Source of the DNA: Cryomorphaceae bacterium
GTDB lineage: Bacteria; Bacteroidota; Bacteroidia; Flavobacteriales; Schleiferiaceae
Length of the DNA stretch: 5,101 bases
Direction of reading: 5' to 3'
Assembly (NCBI GenBank): GCA_002685435.1
Contig: NYXD01000076.1
Location: forward strand, 8,328 to 13,428
Made by a program: the position numbers and the translations under genes. This document shows, piece by piece, positions 1 to 4,663 of this stretch. The notes under the pieces were generated by a model. That model had not been told where the DNA came from. It saw only the letters and a list, made by a program, of their open reading frames with translations, and searched no databases. Each line of letters begins with the position of its first letter. The first letter of the stretch is position 1.

Positions 1-708
1 GACATAAAAAAAATTGTTCCCTTTTACATTAAAGTTAAGCTTCAGTTACTCAAAAGATCAGTGCGGGATGTTGTTAAAGGCTATTATTTCAATTATGCGA
101 AAAGAAGGTATTCCACAAATGATTTCTCAAATTCAATCGCGTTAAAACAGGAATTAAAGCCAAATAAGGCGAAAAACAAAAATCTCCTAAGGGCCATAAA
201 GAGAATAGAGCAGATTCAGATAAACCCCAATGAGATACTCTCTTTTTGGCGAATTGTAGGCAACCCATCAAAAAAGAATGGATTTACAGAGAGTCGTTCT
301 TTAGTAAATGGCAAAATTGAAAATACCATTGGAGGCGGGTTGTGTCAACTATCGGGTCTTATGTACTATATAAGTTTAATTGCCCAGCTCGAAATTCTAG
401 AAAGACACAATCACTCTATTGATATTTATAACGAAGAAACTCGATTTACGCCTTTAGGTTCTGATGCAACTGTAGCCTATGGCTATAAAGATTTAAAAAT
501 TAGAAATAACCTGAATTGCCCCATAAAATTCAACTTTTCTATTGAAGACGATACTATCAAGGTAATGATATTGCACTCTAGTGTAATTAGGCACAACGTT
601 GTTGAATTTAAAGAAGTTATTTCTGACGATAATGTGATTGAGGTCATTACAATAATTAATAACCAAGTATATAATAATTCAACTTATAAAAAGTATCCGG
701 TCGTTTAG
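1..708 (+). CDS. VanW family protein, 5'-partial
   Basis: The reading frame is open from base 1, so the gene is cut by the window edge. A GTG at 61 exists, but the 20 codons before it (DIKKIVPFYIKVKLQLLKRS) read like the basic N-terminus usual in this family, so I place the start outside the window. Counting from base 1, the family signature is clear: FWRIVGNP near residues 83-89, GGGLCQLSGLMY at 111-121, ILERHNHS at 132-139 and GSDATVAYGYKDLKIRNN at 153-170, followed by a beta-rich tail to residue 235. VanW was named from vancomycin-resistance clusters, but most homologues are stand-alone genes of unknown biochemical role, probably envelope-related. No van ligase, dehydrogenase or sensor gene is nearby, so a resistance role is not supported. 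The gene ends directly before a decayed intergenic repeat. Confidence 0.88.
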   Translation, partial: DIKKIVPFYIKVKLQLLKRSVRDVVKGYYFNYAKRRYSTNDFSNSIALKQELKPNKAKNKNLLRAIKRIEQIQINPNEILSFWRIVGNPSKKNGFTESRSLVNGKIENTIGGGLCQLSGLMYYISLIAQLEILERHNHSIDIYNEETRFTPLGSDATVAYGYKDLKIRNNLNCPIKFNFSIEDDTIKVMILHSSVIRHNVVEFKEVISDDNVIEVITIINNQVYNNSTYKKYPVV

Positions 709-709
709 A

Positions 710-757
710 CACCTATAAATAATACAGTTAAACATGTAGGATTTATCAGAGGTCTAA
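710..757 (+). repeat. Box I, decayed fifth copy
   Basis: This aligns with box I at 3901-3960: CACCTAT at its left end, then CAGTT, AGGA, TCAGAG and a TAA at the equivalent position, with about 13 bases missing near the middle. Most mismatches in the right half are transitions. On its own it would be weak. It is supported because it is followed, with the same spacing, by an unmistakable box II. Confidence 0.55.
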
Positions 758-848
758 AGTCAAAATGAAACAGTGAACCGCTGTTGATTCATTAGGTTTA
801 TGACAAATAAAAACTTAACCCCTATTTGGCATCTCCTATGAAGACAAT
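758..848 (+). repeat. Box II leader repeat, copy 1
   Basis: Bases GTCAAAATGAAACA, TCATTAG, CCCCTATTT and CCTATGAAGACAA occur here in the same order and nearly the same spacing as in box II at 3961-4043, where they form the leader and start codon of a lipoprotein gene. Here the ATG at 838 opens only a 16-codon frame. It contains a minimal ATG-AAA-CAG-TGA frame at 765-776. Confidence 0.8.
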
Positions 849-888
849 TAAAATGTTAATGACTTGCCTATCTTTGGCAGATGAGTAG
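838..888 (+). pseudogene. Lipoprotein signal-peptide relic
   Basis: The ATG at 838 sits at the same place in box II as the true start of the lipoprotein gene at 4035. It encodes 16 residues, MKTIKMLMTCLSLADE, then TAG. The first codons match the MKTNKTLLLSC start of the 4035 gene in both bases and residues, after which the frame is lost. I read it as the remnant of a deleted lipoprotein gene. Its last codons overlap the ATG of the next gene (881), so it could instead act as a short upstream frame coupled to that gene. Confidence 0.4.
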
Positions 889-1333
889 AATAAGATCTAA
901 TTTTTCGTTGACCTTTAGTTCTTTTTTCGGTATGCTCTCAGCATTTGCTGGATTTATCTTCGGTGGACAAGAAGATACAAACTTTGAATATTTATATGTC
1001 TACGCCGGATTAGGCGGTTTGATTGGTGGCTACCTGGTCTCCAGCTGGCTCATAATGAAGCCTAATAATTATAATTTCTCAAGATTAATAATCAGTGGTT
1101 TTACAATTGGTTTTGTAAGTCCCTATACCTGTTGGATAATTGCTTTTGGTTTTGATTCCTTGGTCAATAAAGAAACTAGATTAACGTTTATTGAAAACCC
1201 AATAATGATGCTACTATCTCCTGCTAGCATGACTTTAATGAATCTTGTCTTTTTTGGATGGCTAATAATTCCTCTTGCTATCATAACACTTTTCCTTACC
1301 ACGAAAATATTACAATCTAAAAGGCCAAGTTAA
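881..1333 (+). CDS. Four-helix membrane protein, unknown family
   Basis: This 150-residue protein is strongly hydrophobic, with likely membrane segments near residues 9-28, 39-58, 69-90 and 118-141. It is glycine-rich in the first half (AGLGGLIGG, 42-50) and has a basic N-terminus (MSRIRSN) and basic C-terminus (KILQSKRPS), which suggests that both ends face the cytoplasm. There are no charged residues inside the helices that would point to a transporter or enzyme, and I do not recognise a family. The start at 881 gives the whole first helix. It lies inside the end of a 16-codon relic frame (ATGAGTAG overlap) and has no visible ribosome binding site. The gene stands alone between two copies of the intergenic repeat. 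Confidence 0.75.
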   Translation: MSRIRSNFSLTFSSFFGMLSAFAGFIFGGQEDTNFEYLYVYAGLGGLIGGYLVSSWLIMKPNNYNFSRLIISGFTIGFVSPYTCWIIAFGFDSLVNKETRLTFIENPIMMLLSPASMTLMNLVFFGWLIIPLAIITLFLTTKILQSKRPS

Positions 1334-1351
1334 TATAGAAAGGCAGGTTCT

Positions 1352-1369
1352 CTGCTCAAGCTACAGCAG
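1352..1369 (+). other. Hairpin downstream of the 881 gene
   Basis: CTGCT at 1352-1356 and AGCAG at 1365-1369 form a 5-bp stem with an 8-base loop, just after the stop of the 881 gene. There is no following T-run, so it is not a convincing intrinsic terminator. Confidence 0.3.
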
Positions 1370-1378
1370 GTAGTGAGT

Positions 1379-1462
1379 CATAGCGATAAGACAATATCGC
1401 TTATCTATTTGAGAGGATTAGAAGTGAAGTAGTTGGATGTTGAGGGTTTTCCAGAGATGTAA
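1379..1462 (+). repeat. Box I, copy A
   Basis: From 1397 to 1462 it differs from the copy at 3895-3960 at about 12 of 66 positions by hand count. Upstream, CATAGCGATA is also shared with 3877-3886. In the shared reading frame it gives SLIYLRGLEVK, a TAG, LDVEGFPEM and TAA, so the frame is broken at codon 15 but the terminal stop is kept. A perfect 7-bp inverted repeat, AGCGATA (1382-1388) and TATCGCT (1395-1401), lies at its left end. Confidence 0.85.
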
Positions 1463-1512
1463 ATGGTCAAAATGAAACAAGAAGCTACTTTTAAAATCCT
1501 AATTTTATAAAA
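1463..1512 (+). repeat. Box II leader repeat, copy A
   Basis: GGTCAAAATGAAACAAGAAG followed by CTACTTTTAAAATCCT aligns with 3961-4000 almost without gaps. The right end of box II (CCCCTATTT and CCTATGAAG) is missing. The following gene instead starts behind an A-rich stretch. Confidence 0.75.
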
Positions 1513-1524
1513 ACAAGAGAAAAA

Positions 1525-1890
1525 ATGATTAGACAAATCCAATTCATACTCCTTTCTATTTCGTTTTTCGCAATAACAAGTTGTGCGGACAGTGGTCCAT
1601 ATGAAGATGAAAATCTAGACCCTGACCTAATCGGCGAGTGGCAAGAACAAACAACAGACGACAGAAGAGAAGTGATCACTTTTGACTCTGAAGGGCGCAG
1701 TGCATTTTTTTATTTAAATGTTGTAACTGGCGTAATAGAAGGTCAGTATCAACCAATGGAATGGTATACAATAAATAATTATTTGCATCAAATATCGCAA
1801 AGCGCAGGTGTTTTCGTAAGTGAGTATGATGTAACTGATAGCATACTAACATTAGACTCAGGTACTCCTATTGCTTTTATCAAACAATAG
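1525..1890 (+). CDS. Small lipoprotein, lipocalin-like
   Basis: This 121-residue protein has a lipoprotein signal peptide: a hydrophobic stretch at residues 6-16, then the lipobox ITSC with Cys20 as the lipid-attachment site. Acidic residues follow the cysteine (ADSGPYEDEN), which in Bacteroidota often accompanies export to the outer leaflet; that location is inference. The mature part has alternating polar and hydrophobic strands: LIGEWQ at 35-40, EVITFDSEGRS at 49-59, a GQYQPMEW turn near 73-80, and YDVTDSILTLDSGTPIAFIK at 101-120. The 'GEWQ ... ITFDSEG ... W-I-NN ... L-L' pattern is that of small lipocalin-like lipoproteins, but no ligand or partner can be named. The start follows an A-rich leader (AAAACAAGAGAAAAA). 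A terminator lies 72 bases past the stop. Confidence 0.82.
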   Translation: MIRQIQFILLSISFFAITSCADSGPYEDENLDPDLIGEWQEQTTDDRREVITFDSEGRSAFFYLNVVTGVIEGQYQPMEWYTINNYLHQISQSAGVFVSEYDVTDSILTLDSGTPIAFIKQ

Positions 1891-1962
1891 AAACCTAATA
1901 CTTCAAGATTCCTAGTGGTAATTTTTTATTGTAGCGATCATTCAAATTAATTTTTTCACAAA

Positions 1963-1988
1963 GTCTCTTCTTCGGAAGGGGCTTTTTT
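1963..1988 (+). terminator. Intrinsic terminator with UUCG loop
   Basis: GTCTCTTC (1963-1970), loop TTCG and GAAGGGGC (1975-1982) form an 8-bp stem with two G-U pairs, followed by six T at 1983-1988. It ends transcripts of the 1525 lipoprotein gene. It is almost identical to the terminator at 4544-4569, and the match continues into the bases after the T-run. Confidence 0.88.
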
Positions 1989-2009
1989 ATTTCCTTACGG
2001 CAAATAGAT

Positions 2010-2082
2010 AAAACTGTCACTCAACTATTTATGCGGATTAGAAGTGAAGTAGATAGAAGTTGAGGACTTGCCAGAGTTATAA
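2010..2082 (+). repeat. Box I, copy B
   Basis: From 2017 to 2082 it differs from the copy at 3895-3960 at about 11 of 66 positions. In the shared frame it reads SLNYLCGLEVK, TAG, IEVEDLPEL, TAA. The TAG at 2050-2052 is at the same codon as in copy A, and both also share GTG for the preceding valine. No box II follows. Confidence 0.85.
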
Positions 2083-2247
2083 ATATATCCCAGCTACGAG
2101 GCACATAATGGAAGATGAGTCAACTTGTAAGGGCTACGAGAGCAAAAGTGTCTGTGTACGAGATTATATAGTATCACGGAGGTTTTACGCAATGGTTATA
2201 TTTTCCGTATTAATTAATACACCTATTCAGAAATAATAAACTTATCT
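2083..2247 (+). other. Gene-free gap after box I copy B
   Basis: The 357-base gap 1891-2247 holds the terminator, box I and this remainder. GCTACGAG occurs twice (2092-2099 and 2133-2140). An ATG at 2108 opens a 42-codon frame to 2236 with no recognisable product and no clear leader. AATACACCTATT at 2216-2227 matches the AATACACCTATG before the gene at 3356 except that the start codon is changed. I see no promoter consensus. Confidence 0.4.
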
Positions 2248-2835
2248 ATGATTTTACGAATTGAGAACTATTCCACAGGGTTTAGAGTACTTAATGGTGA
2301 TACAGTAATTCTTAGAGCAAATCACGTTAAATGGTATCGTGATGCGATTAGTTACGAGTATGATGGTAAAAAAGGGCTTATGGAACCATTGGACCTGTTT
2401 GGCACAAAATCCAACCTTATTAAAGATGGACGTTTATGTGGTGATATCATCTGGAACTGGGGTATGCCGGATTGGAAATGGGGTATGCCGAAATGGAAAT
2501 GGAGTATGCTGAAAAACATCATCAATAGCGTTATTGTACCTCCCTGGTTTTGGGGTAGATATGTATATAATCCCAGTAATGAATCAAGTTCATACTACTT
2601 AAAAGAATCTGTGAGTTTGGCGCTGCATCCTGAGCGAAAAGAGTTTTATCAACTTATTCGCACAACGGACAAAGAAAGTATACTATCAATCACGGTGCTA
2701 GGAGGTTTTATATCAAAAGCTAAAATTCATGTAGATTATAGAGGTTCACACATAGATGAAGATTTACTTGCTTTTGCAGTGTTCGCATTTAAATCTATCC
2801 AGCGAGGCAACCGTCCGTTATACACTGGTTTCTAA
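2248..2835 (+). CDS. Unrecognised protein with Trp-rich heptads
   Basis: The protein has 195 residues and no signal peptide or convincing membrane helix. The N-terminal part (1-68) looks beta-rich, with repeated hydrophobic-polar alternation (FRVLNGDTVILRANHVKWY). Residues 69-89 are three imperfect heptads, WNWGMPD, WKWGMPK and WKWSMLK, encoded by a 21-base tandem repeat at 2452-2514. The C-terminal part runs through SVSLALHPERKEFYQLI and ends with a hydrophobic LLAFAVFAF segment (174-182) and a basic tail. The overall order, beta-strands then a terminal hydrophobic helix, is loosely like tubby/LURP-type folds, but this is only an impression. It leads a three-gene run: the next ATG is 12 bases past its stop. 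The chosen ATG follows an A/T-rich leader and gives the full beta region. Confidence 0.72.
   Translation: MILRIENYSTGFRVLNGDTVILRANHVKWYRDAISYEYDGKKGLMEPLDLFGTKSNLIKDGRLCGDIIWNWGMPDWKWGMPKWKWSMLKNIINSVIVPPWFWGRYVYNPSNESSSYYLKESVSLALHPERKEFYQLIRTTDKESILSITVLGGFISKAKIHVDYRGSHIDEDLLAFAVFAFKSIQRGNRPLYTGF
2452..2514 (+). repeat. In-frame 21-base tandem repeat, three units
   Basis: Three 21-base units within the 2248 gene encode the heptad W-x-W-G-M-P-x. Units one and two are nearly identical; the third has drifted (SML in place of GMP). Being a multiple of three, changes in copy number would keep the frame. Confidence 0.85.
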
Positions 2836-2847
2836 ACTAATACGCCT

Positions 2848-3348
2848 ATGAAACTACTTACTACAATTGCAGCAGTACTGCTATCAATCTCCGCTTTCAG
2901 TCAAGACTACATAGAATACGATAATGGAACCTTCACTCAGAATGGAGAAGAATTGTCAATGGAACAAATTGAACATCTGATAGAGCAATATCAAGCTGGG
3001 TGGCGAGCTCAAGTTAATTTTAGAAGAGGTATGAGATTTAATAAAAGGGCTACTGACGAAGGGAGGCTTTCAAGGAATTTGATGGGTACAGGAGTCGGAG
3101 TAGTTGGTCTCTTTGCAGCAGGAGGAACTTATGGCATTGGCTTTTTATGGGCCAACCCATTGTTTGGAGGAGATGGTGACCAGGAAAAAGCAACTAATTA
3201 TTACCTTGCCGGTACAGCTATAACGGCAGTAACCGTCTATTCAACTGTCAAAATTTCTTCTCTCAAATATTGGCAAAACAGAAGGGAAACCTCTTTCAAT
3301 ATCGTTGCGAATAAATTGAATAAGGCTATCAAGGCTTCTAATGAATAA
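2848..3348 (+). CDS. Secreted/membrane protein, first tandem paralogue
   Basis: This 166-residue protein starts with a typical signal peptide, MKLLTTIAAVLLSISAFSQ, with likely cleavage around residue 18. The mature part has a short beta-like stretch (YIEYDNGTFTQNGEELSMEQ, 21-40), an acidic helix, a basic patch (RRGMRFNKRATDEGRLSRN), then two hydrophobic segments near 79-101 and 118-136, and a basic helix to the end. It is a paralogue of the following gene: ITQ/FTQ plus LS-x-E-x near residue 31-40, R-x-x-M-x-FNK near 60-66, two hydrophobic segments and a helical tail are shared. No known family is recognised. It is 12 bases after the 2248 gene, so probably co-transcribed with it. An inner-membrane or periplasm-facing role is inference. 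Confidence 0.8.
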   Translation: MKLLTTIAAVLLSISAFSQDYIEYDNGTFTQNGEELSMEQIEHLIEQYQAGWRAQVNFRRGMRFNKRATDEGRLSRNLMGTGVGVVGLFAAGGTYGIGFLWANPLFGGDGDQEKATNYYLAGTAITAVTVYSTVKISSLKYWQNRRETSFNIVANKLNKAIKASNE

Positions 3349-3355
3349 TACACCT

Positions 3356-3871
3356 ATGAAACTACTAACTACCATCGCAGCAGTACTCATATCAATCTCT
3401 GCTTACAGCCAAGAAAAATTAATTTACCAAGGTGACGGAATCATCACCCAAGGTCAGGATACTCTTTCATTAGAGGAGTTTAAAGGAATGTGTCTTGAAA
3501 AAAGGATAGTTAAATATCAAAAAGTCTATCGCTCACCTTCATTCTTCCCTTTTTTCAGGCGGGAAATTGGAATGACCTTTAACAAAGCCGTCAAGAAGAG
3601 TTTTGTAGGTCAAACAAAACGAGAGACTACCAAGTATAACTTGCAGAAAATAGCTTTTGGATTACCATCCATTGGGCTTGGTGCTGGTTTGATAATCTGG
3701 AACATTGGTGATTATGCAGATGGTGAAGGAGATTGGGTGCGTCCCGCAATAGGTGTTTCACTTGAGCTAGCAGGTCTTGTGATGCTAAATGACGTTTCAG
3801 CGAGAAGCAATCACAAATACCAATCCGATGTATATTTTGAAATGTTGGTATCCCGCTACAACAATAAGTAA
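3356..3871 (+). CDS. Secreted/membrane protein, second tandem paralogue
   Basis: I place the start at 3356, not at the in-frame ATG at 3341. From 3356 the protein begins MKLLTTIAAVLISISAYSQ, matching the previous gene residue for residue, and both ATGs follow the same AATAC-x-CCT bases. The 3341 start would overlap the previous stop and add five polar residues in front of a signal peptide. The product has 171 residues: signal peptide to about 18, a beta-like stretch (KLIYQGDGIITQGQDTLSLE), a basic region with REIGMTFNKAVKKS (69-82), hydrophobic segments near 97-117 and 129-145, and a helical tail. Paralogue of the 2848 gene, clearly diverged after the signal peptide. The gap to the previous gene is 7 bases. 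Its TAA overlaps an ATG (TAATG) that opens a repeat-borne short frame. Confidence 0.82.
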   Translation: MKLLTTIAAVLISISAYSQEKLIYQGDGIITQGQDTLSLEEFKGMCLEKRIVKYQKVYRSPSFFPFFRREIGMTFNKAVKKSFVGQTKRETTKYNLQKIAFGLPSIGLGAGLIIWNIGDYADGEGDWVRPAIGVSLELAGLVMLNDVSARSNHKYQSDVYFEMLVSRYNNK

Positions 3872-3876
3872 TGGGA

Positions 3877-3960
3877 CATAGCGATATGAATGTATCCCTC
3901 ACCTATTTAAGGGGGTTAGAAGTCAAGCAGTTGGATGTTGAGGACTTGCCAGAGTTGTAA
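3877..3960 (+). repeat. Box I, copy C
   Basis: This is the reference copy. It shares CATAGCGATA with copy A at its left end and is nearly identical to copy D over 3886-3960. The left end holds a 7-bp inverted repeat with one mismatch, AGCGATA (3880-3886) against TATCCCT (3893-3899), at the same place as the perfect one in copy A. Confidence 0.9.
3886..3960 (+). CDS. Repeat-borne 24-codon ORF, copy C
   Basis: ATG at 3886 to TAA at 3958-3960 gives a 24-residue peptide containing SLTYLRGLEVKQLD and EDLPEL. The frame also extends upstream to an ATG at 3871 that overlaps the stop of the 3356 gene. Against copy D there are six differences in 75 bases: three synonymous, two conservative in frame (N/K, V/F) and one that swaps TAA for TAG. 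That pattern suggests the sequence was, or is, translated. The L-rich spacing recalls a leucine-rich-repeat end. It may equally be a relic of a longer gene's C-terminus. No ribosome binding site is visible. Confidence 0.28.
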   Translation: MNVSLTYLRGLEVKQLDVEDLPEL

Positions 3961-4034
3961 GGTCAGAATGAAACAATAAACCACTTTAGAGTCATTAGAT
4001 TTACTTCAAATTAATAACATATCCCCTATTTCCT
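3961..4034 (+). repeat. Box II leader repeat, copy C
   Basis: This is the 5' leader of the 4035 lipoprotein gene. It begins GGTCAGAATGAAACAATAAA and ends CCCCTATTTCCT before the ATG, and the match to 758-848 continues into the first codons of the gene. It carries an ATG-AAA-CAA-TAA minimal frame at 3968-3979. Confidence 0.85.
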
Positions 4035-4520
4035 ATGAAGACAAATAAAACTTTACTGCTATCCTGTATTCTTGCTTTAGCATCGTGTACAACTGACCCT
4101 TGTATAGACGTCACTTGTTATAATGACGGTGTTTGTGACGATGGAACTTGTATTTGTGCTGACTGGTATGAAGGTGGAGATTGTAGCACTGAAGAAAGAG
4201 CGAAGTATTATGGTGATTACATAGGTACAGCAACCTATTTTAATACGGATGGAGATGCAATTGATAGTTTTACTGATACAATACCTGTAGTTGCGAATGG
4301 TTCAGTTGTGAGTGGATTAGTTGCAGACGGAATTCCATTGGTTTTAAACGTTTCAGGAACAGGAGGTTTCGCAATTCCCTCAACGGAAACGACTGACCCA
4401 AGCGGGACTTCGCTCACTGTCTCAGGTGATGGCTCGTTTGACAGTAACCTCTTAACCATAAACGCTACAATGGAGTTTGCACAAGACACCCTTACCTACA
4501 CATTTACAGGAAGCAAATAA
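4035..4520 (+). CDS. Lipoprotein with EGF-like domain
   Basis: This 161-residue protein has a lipoprotein signal peptide with the lipobox LASC (Cys18). Residues 23-50 form an EGF-like module with six cysteines at 23, 28, 34, 39, 41 and 50 (C-x4-C-x5-C-x4-C-x-C-x8-C) and the usual N-D-G and G-x-x-C positions; three disulfides are expected. Residues 55-161 are a Thr/Ser/Gly-rich beta domain: YYGDYIGTATYF, then alternating strands to LTYTFTGSK. The EGF plus small beta-domain layout is common among Bacteroidota surface lipoproteins of unknown function. The start is fixed by the conserved box II leader and by giving a complete signal peptide. A terminator lies 23 bases past the stop, so it is probably a single-gene transcript. 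No ligand can be named. Confidence 0.88.
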   Translation: MKTNKTLLLSCILALASCTTDPCIDVTCYNDGVCDDGTCICADWYEGGDCSTEERAKYYGDYIGTATYFNTDGDAIDSFTDTIPVVANGSVVSGLVADGIPLVLNVSGTGGFAIPSTETTDPSGTSLTVSGDGSFDSNLLTINATMEFAQDTLTYTFTGSK

Positions 4521-4543
4521 TTACAGACTACTTTAATTACAGA

Positions 4544-4569
4544 GCCTCTTCTTCGGAAGGGGCTTTTTT
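4544..4569 (+). terminator. Intrinsic terminator with UUCG loop
   Basis: GCCTCTTC (4544-4551), loop TTCG and GAAGGGGC (4556-4563) form an 8-bp stem followed by six T. It ends the 4035 lipoprotein transcript. It differs by one base in the stem from the terminator at 1963-1988, and TTTCCTT follows the T-run region in both. Confidence 0.9.
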
Positions 4570-4588
4570 GTTTCCTTGAAGCAAGTCA

Positions 4589-4663
4589 ATGAAAGTATCC
4601 CTTACCTATTTAAGAGGATTAGAAGTCAAGCAGTTGGATTTTGAGGACTTGCCAGAGTTGTAG
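4589..4663 (+). CDS. Repeat-borne 24-codon ORF, copy D (box I)
   Basis: This is box I copy D, about 92% identical to 3886-3960. ATG at 4589 to TAG at 4661-4663 gives 24 residues with SLTYLRGLEVKQLD and EDLPEL. An in-frame TGA upstream (4577-4579) rules out a longer frame here, so in this copy the peptide cannot be the tail of the preceding gene. It lies just past the terminator of the 4035 gene and would need its own promoter, for which no consensus is visible. It could be a small protein gene or a relic. Confidence 0.28.
   Translation: MKVSLTYLRGLEVKQLDFEDLPEL
4589..4663 (+). repeat. Box I, copy D
   Basis: The repeat unit matches copy C at 69 of 75 positions. Together with copy B it forms a subtype preceded by the UUCG terminator, so the shared stretch in B and D begins at the terminator and runs about 120 bases. 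Confidence 0.9.

What the first reader, a model, noticed from the sequence alone, without database searches (positions are those of the whole stretch)
710..4663. Unlabelled intergenic repeat family at almost every gene joint
Box I occurs in four clear copies (1379-1462, 2010-2082, 3877-3960, 4589-4663) and one decayed copy (710-757), all in the + orientation and all between genes of unrelated product. By hand count the pairs differ at 5 to 12 of 66 positions. The layout of unrelated small genes separated by a common element is cassette-like. Two models fit: joints left from an old tandem gene array whose genes were replaced by recombination at the joints, or a mobile or recombination-active small element.
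Basis: partly seen in the sequence, partly recalled or inferred. Interest (0 to 1): 0.78.

Follow-up and report, generated by a model that had tools for sequence, protein, structure and literature searches.

The report
Shared integrase tails joining island genes
The repeat between these genes is the leftover last stretch of a DNA-integrating enzyme's gene, and related marine bacteria carry rows of such leftovers at tRNA genes where small cargo genes appear to be swapped by recombination inside the repeat.

Summary
The repeat is real. Four copies match far beyond shuffled controls; the fifth is clear only with its downstream flank. It is the 3' end of a tyrosine-recombinase (integrase) gene, ending ...GHSDMKVSLTYLRGLEVKQLDVEDLPEL-stop.

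In related, mostly marine Flavobacteriales drafts, 12 of 15 integrases of this family have a tRNA gene or fragment just upstream. Arrays of the tail, in one orientation in 20 of 20 loci with two or more copies, separate small cargo genes. One filled site has empty relatives and is flanked by a 104-bp direct repeat carrying the 5' half of tRNA-Met. So these are tRNA-targeted integrative islands.

The tail behaves as a joint: its upstream and downstream sides reassort. In the array group, integrase bodies average 52% nucleotide identity and tails 81%; 18 of 36 pairs differ by more than 0.30, against 0 of 36 in a comparison group.

I favour homologous recombination between tails over an integron-like reaction: breakpoints scatter, attC-like folding is absent, and the insertion sites are tRNA genes. 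No exchange was observed directly. New variant of a known kind.

The parts
710..862 (+). Decayed copy: right half of the integrase tail (about 714-757), then the leader and start of the lipoprotein cassette
   Evidence: (D3, D8) and 70: 59 vs shuffle maximum 18 against 3912-4060; box part alone weak
1339..1462 (+). Copy 1: integrase tail with int-like left part; reading frame broken by TAG
2001..2082 (+). Copy 2: integrase tail with terminator-type left flank; contains TAG and an indel
3859..3960 (+). Copy 3: best-scoring integrase tail of the window (86.1 bits); open from the catalytic Tyr codon to the stop; gene 3341-3871 ends inside it
4582..4663 (+). Copy 4: integrase tail with terminator-type left flank; open from the Tyr codon to the stop
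1943..2000 (+). Terminator-like left flank of copy 2, shared with 4524-4581 and flanks in other loci
   Evidence: (D2)
4524..4581 (+). Terminator-like left flank of copy 4; the 249-nt left flank is 90.8% identical to that of a box in L040
3961..4034 (+). Leader of the lipoprotein cassette; the right flank is 90% identical over 294 nt to one in L040
881..1333 (+). Cargo gene, probable membrane protein (by eye), no Pfam match
1525..1890 (+). Cargo gene, lipoprotein-like (by eye); 85% identical to a protein in the array of L043
2248..2835 (+). Cargo gene; 73% identical to a protein in the array of L118
2848..3348 (+). Cargo gene of the MKLLTT family; 507 proteins at E<=1e-3; about 43% identical to proteins in L043 and L118
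3341..3871 (+). Second MKLLTT-family cargo gene
4035..4520 (+). Cargo gene, lipoprotein-like with weak EGF-type matches below curated cut-offs; 93% identical to a protein in L040 and 67% to one in L127
5014..5088 (-). tRNA-His, probable island end (an array of G007 also lies beside tRNA-His)

Best explanation
The box is the 3' end of a tyrosine-integrase gene. It is one of many copies in an array inside an integrative island that was inserted into a tRNA gene (probably tRNA-His for the window). A full island reads: tRNA fragment, integrase gene, its tail, cargo gene, tail copy, cargo gene and so on, then the restored tRNA gene. Shown: what the box is, the island structure at one locus (tRNA-Met), the uniform orientation, and the reassortment of sequences on either side of the tail. 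Inferred: the tail works as a portable stretch of homology. Recombination between tails (most likely RecA-type homologous recombination) joins different cargo to an integrase, moves cargo between islands at different tRNA genes, deletes or inserts cargo in arrays, and gives the integrase a new C-terminus each time. Split of my belief about the exchange: homologous recombination about 0.55; integrase-catalysed recombination at the tail about 0.25; mainly passive fossils of insertion and deletion, or some other cause, about 0.2.
For: Identity: translated relatives read KLQQVMGHSDMKVSLTYLRGLEVKQLDVEDLPEL-stop and end integrase genes; PF00589 passes its cut-off in 2 of 3 proteins tested. R288, K316, R384, H407 and Y416 are invariant in 13 integrases. 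Island: filled L121 against 7 of 7 fetched relatives of that locus shows its two flanks overlapping by 62-105 bp in the relative. The overlap carries the tRNA-Met 5' half that stands beside the integrase, with a full tRNA-Met at the far end. No box-profile hit at E<=1 in the 20 loci L149-L168. Twelve of 15 integrases have a tRNA gene or piece just upstream. Joint: integrases at one tRNA-Met locus (G006, G250) match at 80.7% over 1210 nt, ending at the stop codon; what follows differs (only 65 nt of G006 remain on the contig). Integrases L121 (tRNA-Met) and L122 (tRNA-Ala) are 40-54% identical in 30-codon windows of the body, but 91% over 237 nt reaching from about 56 codons before the end to 66 nt past the stop. 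Tail minus body identity exceeds 0.30 in 18 of 36 pairs of the array group and 0 of 36 of the other group. Same-left/different-right and same-right/different-left boxes exist. Homologous rather than site-specific: of 16 overlapping triplets, best breakpoints fall at box 2-14 in 7, at 27-32 in 4, elsewhere or unresolved in 5; the L121/L122 block starts about 37 codons left of the Tyr codon; exchange is also seen at gene leaders outside the box.
Against: The genome of the window is not held, so its island head and integrase were not seen. No excised circle or live exchange was observed. Tails of 60-170 bp at 70-91% identity are poor substrates for homologous recombination between species (general knowledge). 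Uniform orientation also fits a directional site-specific site. The left ends of tail copies are not evenly spread: 9 of 50 lie 72-76 nt and 12 of 50 lie 112-125 nt from the end of the profile (several share descent), which hints at a defined unit. tRNA-like fragments do occur near copies in G003 (L044, L045), as serial insertion would predict. Some arrays show no full integrase: in G001 only tails were matched. How tails were first copied without the rest of the gene is unexplained.
Confidence: 0.6

Rival explanations
1. Integron-like site-specific system: the integrase recombines tail with tail, crossing over near its own catalytic Tyr codon. Single-gene cassettes insert behind the integrase, and the first cassette supplies the integrase's C-terminus.
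For: Uniform orientation in 20 of 20 loci, spacing median 714 bp, n = 40; cargo shared between loci; 4 of 16 triplet breakpoints at 27-32, the Tyr codon being 30-32; a group of left ends 72-76 nt from the end (9 of 50), a half-site-like distance left of the Tyr codon; synonymous identity of the last codons 75.6% against 35-40% in the body.
Against: The insertion sites of these integrases are tRNA genes and no box-profile hit lies in the 20 loci L149-L168. Breakpoints scatter; the L121/L122 exchange begins about 37 codons left of the Tyr codon. The centre of the tail is less conserved than its sides (codons -6 to +1 nt identity 0.68, sides about 0.84). No general attC-like folding. An ungapped count first suggested a stronger cluster of left ends; with gaps it is weaker.
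Confidence: 0.25
2. Passive fossils: islands with their own integrase inserted repeatedly at the same tRNA gene, and older integrases eroded to their tails; the tails have no role in exchange.
For: Many copies are broken: 15 of 51 tails are open from the Tyr codon to the stop; the third-codon-position share of differences is 0.62 among 10 integrases and 0.50 among 30 ungapped copies. Four copies keep longer remnants of 163-253 nt. tRNA-like fragments near copies in L044 and L045.
Against: Random erosion should leave remnants of all lengths of a gene over 1 kb, but 46 of 50 alignable copies (51 examined) reach no more than 128 nt from the end. Twelve tRNA sequences used as queries find no fragments between the cassettes of the window, L040, L118 or L043. 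Sides of boxes reassort.
Confidence: 0.15
3. The box is a functional non-coding element (promoter, small RNA or similar) kept by selection in front of each cargo gene.
For: Several copies keep only the right half; synonymous conservation is highest in the last codons of the array group.
Against: No Rfam match at the boxes; no consistent folding signal; four cargo genes in L040 run opposite to the boxes; copies decay. Promoter activity was not tested.
Confidence: 0.05

Closest known systems
tRNA-targeted integrative genomic islands (Islander type, PMC4383910; passages seen)
   Same: Tyrosine integrase beside a displaced tRNA fragment, restored tRNA at the other end, empty sites in relatives; crossover in the anticodon region is one of the subsites that paper lists.
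   Different: Cargo is split into an array by copies of the integrase gene's own 3' end, and integrases at different tRNA genes share that end.
Tycheposons (passages in PMC10872708; the original description was not seen)
   Same: tRNA-bordered islands with a tyrosine recombinase in streamlined aquatic bacteria.
   Different: Islands of about 5-7 kb here with tail arrays; no tail array is mentioned in the passages seen.
CIME/ICE accretion (PMC5704250, PMC3146451; passages seen)
   Same: Tandem integrase-less units inside an island locus.
   Different: There units are bounded by att or target-gene repeats; here by integrase-gene tails, with no tRNA fragments found between units in four arrays.
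Integrons (recalled from general knowledge; tested)
   Same: Small genes in one array with a tyrosine recombinase, repeats in one orientation at unit boundaries.
   Different: Recombinase is not IntI by model score, repeats derive from a coding end and do not fold as attC, recombinases sit at tRNA genes.

Membership tests
tRNA-targeted integrative island | Tyrosine integrase gene inside the island, near one end | tested here: met
   Met for L121, L122, L050, L003 and others; not visible in the 5.1-kb window
tRNA-targeted integrative island | Displaced tRNA fragment at one end and intact tRNA at the other | tested here: met
   L121: tRNA-Met positions 1-40 at 14227-14188 and full tRNA at 8894-8820. 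Window: only the intact tRNA-His seen, so inconclusive there
tRNA-targeted integrative island | Empty site in relatives | tested here: met
   333-aa to MFS gene distance about 6.2 kb in G250 against 635-888 bp in G004, G246, G241, G200, G239, G003; about 3.1 kb in G238
Integron | IntI-type integrase | tested here: not met
   TIGR02249 19.1 bits against cut-off 265 for the L002 integrase
Integron | attC sites that fold as imperfect hairpins | tested here: not met
   Folding z-scores of both strands of 12 tails (2 of them integrase ends) from -2.36 to +2.11; only window copy 1, bottom strand, is below -2
CIME / accretion array | Each unit bounded by copies of the target-site repeat | tested here: not met
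   No tRNA fragments inside the arrays of window, L040, L118, L043 with 12 tRNA queries; fragments near copies in L044 and L045
Tycheposon | tRNA boundary plus tyrosine recombinase | tested here: met
Tycheposon | Further diagnostic genes of the family | not tested
   Original description not among the papers listed
Site-specific cassette system | Single fixed crossover point | tested here: inconclusive
   16 overlapping triplets: 7 at box 2-14, 4 at 27-32, 5 elsewhere or unresolved; L121/L122 block starts about 56 codons before the end

The most novel reading that the evidence does not exclude
A second, integron-independent cassette platform: a tRNA-targeting tyrosine recombinase whose own gene end is the cassette attachment site. 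Every captured cassette supplies a new C-terminus to the recombinase, and one tail design serves integrases at many different tRNA genes, so cassettes can be traded between islands.
Probability: 0.22. Interest if true: 0.88.

Novelty: new variant of a known kind. Interest (0 to 1): 0.6.

Why it matters
It gives a readable record of how small genomes of largely uncultured marine bacteria trade single cargo genes, and it explains a repeat that would otherwise look like an anonymous intergenic element. If the last 40-56 codons of an integrase can be exchanged, the cargo linked to an integrase is uncoupled from its tRNA site, and trees or classifications built on integrase C-termini would mislead. 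The tail is also a simple probe for finding cargo arrays in metagenomes.

Tried and rejected
Chance repeat: rejected. Known RNA family at the boxes: none in the window. Box in plasmid records: no match. The exact pattern in viral contigs: none. Integrase relatives in viral contigs: 7 distant ones (28-40% identity), each tail single in the stretch held; phage records 22-25% identity. attC-like folding: not supported. A single crossover point at the Tyr codon: tested by pair alignments, binned identities and triplets, not sharp. Box as tRNA-derived: the tRNA queries hit tRNA genes and fragments, not the boxes. My first, ungapped count of left ends overstated a cluster at box positions 11-16, because indels cut several alignments short; one search replaces it. 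Literature: ten searches ran; no title or abstract start in the listings describes such tail arrays. The library holds open-licence PubMed Central papers only. Four papers were opened, passages only; the rest were seen in listings.

Limits. The array group (9 integrases) was chosen by strong box matches, so its similar tails are partly built in; the contrast with its own body identity is the informative part. Two of the comparison group of 9 (L076, L077) also have one extra tail. Loci were fetched because they hold boxes or integrases, so frequencies are not unbiased. The profile was built from 19 seed tails. Box thresholds: 15 bits, 20, 23. An opposite-strand hit in L046 at 7.4 bits, E 0.78, was left out. 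Most genomes are fragmented drafts.
Full report
What is there. The window holds four clear copies and one decayed copy of a repeat, all on the + strand. All six pairs of the four clear copies beat 500 shuffles each. The decayed copy is convincing only together with its downstream flank, which matches the leader and start of the lipoprotein cassette at 3912-4060. The repeat occurs at 5 of 7 joints between neighbouring coding genes, one of them decayed.

What the repeat is. A pattern written from the four copies, with codon-like degeneracy, found 10 stretches in the collection of one genome per species (84,980 species). All ten records are titled MAG; nine titles name Flavobacteriales families, Flavobacteriales or Bacteroidetes and one names Rubrivirga. 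Translated in one frame, the repeat reads KLQQVMGHSDMKVSLTYLRGLEVKQLDVEDLPEL-stop. In several loci that frame continues upstream into a gene of about 350-430 codons. Phage_integrase (PF00589) passes its curated cut-off in 2 of 3 proteins tested and falls just below it in the third. Thirteen such proteins share invariant R288, K316, R384, H407 and Y416, which I take as the catalytic positions of tyrosine recombinases, with tyrosine instead of the usual first histidine of the HxxR motif (motif recalled). The nearest solved structures by sequence are a XerC-like recombinase, XerA and the integron integrase IntI4, E-values 2.6e-7 to 3e-5. So the box is the last 20-42 codons of an integrase gene, including the catalytic tyrosine codon.

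Arrays and orientation. In G001, seven of eight profile hits lie within about 5 kb of a 1.9-Mb draft, the seventh weak; the first whole-genome search gave six of seven. In the family of G001, 13 of 88 genomes hold at least one match to window copy 3 at E <= 0.001. In a sample of the order, 28 of 196 genomes match the integrase at E <= 0.001, many of them generic recombinases; 10 match below 1e-50. Over 39 loci with 80 boxes of at least 15 bits, no locus mixes orientations; 20 loci hold two or more boxes (61 boxes). Four cargo genes of L040 run against its boxes, so box orientation is not a by-product of gene orientation. Cargo is shared between arrays: window proteins are 85% identical to one in L043, 73% to one in L118, and 93% and 67% to ones in L040 and L127.

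The islands sit in tRNA genes. Two chromosomal loci could be followed. At the first, the distance between a 333-aa gene and an MFS-type transporter gene (name by eye) is about 6.2 kb in G250 but 635-888 bp in G004, G246, G241, G200, G239 and G003, and about 3.1 kb in G238. Comparing the filled site with these seven relatives, the two flanks overlap by 104, 105, 63, 63, 63, 62 and 62 bp in the relative. In the nearest relatives that segment is the upstream region and 5' half of tRNA-Met up to the anticodon loop. In the filled site a truncated copy stands just upstream of the integrase and a complete tRNA-Met stands at the far end. At the second locus, a gene of about 1,090 codons and a 195-aa marker gene lie 348-353 bp apart in G247 and G245 with tRNA-Ala between them, but 5.6-6.6 kb apart in G250 and G001 with the array between them. 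The integrase of G255, next to the same 1,090-codon gene, is preceded by the first 43 bases of tRNA-Ala. Of 15 integrases examined, 12 have a tRNA gene or piece within about 260 bp upstream by BLAST (Ala, Met, Arg, Leu, Asn); some of these are complete or nearly complete tRNA genes (L076, L078, L081). A 13th, L120, has a weak tRNA match of 26 bits, below the gathering score of 29. L046 and L080 have none that I count. The 20 loci L149-L168 from relatives show no box-profile hit at E <= 1. The window ends at tRNA-His, and an array of G007 also lies beside tRNA-His. Insertion at the anticodon region is a known subsite for such islands (PMC4383910, passages).

The tail is a joint. Boxes with near-identical upstream flanks have unmatched downstream flanks, and the reverse. 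L048 and L118 share 94% over 248 nt on the left and no match at E <= 1e-4 on the right. Three genomes share 94-99% over 300 nt on the right, the chromosomal end of the tRNA-Ala locus, with different left sides. Window copy 4 and a box of L040 share 90.8% on the left only; window copy 3 and a box of L040 share 90% on the right only. The integrases at the tRNA-Met locus in G006 and G250 match at 80.7% over 1210 nt, the match ending at the stop codon. The sequence after it differs, though only 65 nt remain on the G006 contig and these match another leader type. The tRNA-Met integrase of G250 and the tRNA-Ala integrase of G255 are 40-54% identical in 30-codon windows of the body. They share a 237-nt block of 91% identity from about 56 codons before the end to 66 nt past the stop. 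Among nine integrases of the array group, body and tail nucleotide identities average 0.52 and 0.81, and 18 of 36 pairs differ by more than 0.30; among nine others they average 0.61 and 0.69, and 0 of 36 do. Synonymous codon identity rises to 75.6% in the last codons of the array group against 35-40% in the body; in the other group it is 46.5% against 43-46%. Other lineages show tails that match their own integrase best: 93% against at most 80% in G108, 87% against 78% in G129.

Mechanism. Three readings remain. A site-specific reaction at the Tyr codon would explain orientation and modularity, and 4 of 16 triplet breakpoints fall there. Against it: 7 of 16 fall at box 2-14 and 5 elsewhere or unresolved (the triplets overlap, so they are not independent). 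The clearest exchange starts about 37 codons left of the Tyr codon. The centre of the tail is less conserved than its sides. The boxes do not fold in general. The insertion sites of these integrases are tRNA genes. Passive fossils are unlikely to be the whole story: 46 of 50 alignable tail copies reach no more than 128 nt from the end of a gene over 1 kb, no tRNA fragments were found between cassettes in four arrays, and sides reassort. Two loci of G003 do show tRNA-like fragments near copies. Homologous recombination between tails fits the scatter and the long block. It also fits the finding that other shared stretches behave the same way: leaders of the MKLLTT family follow different post-box segments (for example 138-255 against 53-170, 84% identical). 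I therefore favour homologous recombination, without direct proof.

State of the copies. Of 51 non-integrase boxes, 15 are open from the Tyr codon to the stop. The share of differences at third codon positions is 0.62 among 10 integrases and 0.50 among 30 ungapped copies. The copies look like decaying coding DNA, not a tightly conserved non-coding element.

Known or new. tRNA islands, tandem accretion of integrase-less units (PMC5704250, PMC3146451, passages), tycheposons (PMC10872708, passages) and integrons are the nearest known systems. I found no description of arrays separated by the integrase gene's own 3' end in the ten searches, which cover open-licence papers only and of which I saw mainly listings. 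I call it a new variant of a known kind.

Noticed in passing
window 1-708: VanW-domain protein (PF04294, 128.9 bits); far below NCBI's cut-off for the glycopeptide-resistance VanW (113.9 against 365), so not called a resistance gene
   Followed up: partly
window 2452-2514: Three in-frame 21-nt repeats encoding WGMP-like units inside the 195-aa cargo protein (D6)
   Followed up: no
window 2838-2906 and 3346-3414: MKLLTT-family genes share a near-identical leader and protein start (87% over 69 nt) while the rest differs; a second recombination joint seems likely
   Followed up: partly
L118:12853-13383 and L124:7130-7663: By eye, cargo genes appear to continue in frame into the integrase tail, giving chimeric C-termini; window gene 3341-3871 also stops inside box 3
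   Followed up: no
L046:1-2167: Two integrases of this family face away from each other with overlapping 5' ends; one runs off the contig end
   Followed up: no
L044:5799-5849 and L045:9256-9312: tRNA-Asn-like (84%) and tRNA-His-like (95%) fragments near tail copies of G003, possible displaced tRNA pieces
   Followed up: no
L169-L175 (viral contigs): Distant relatives of the integrase (28-40%), each with a single tail in the stretch held; tRNA genes in five of the seven loci
   Followed up: partly
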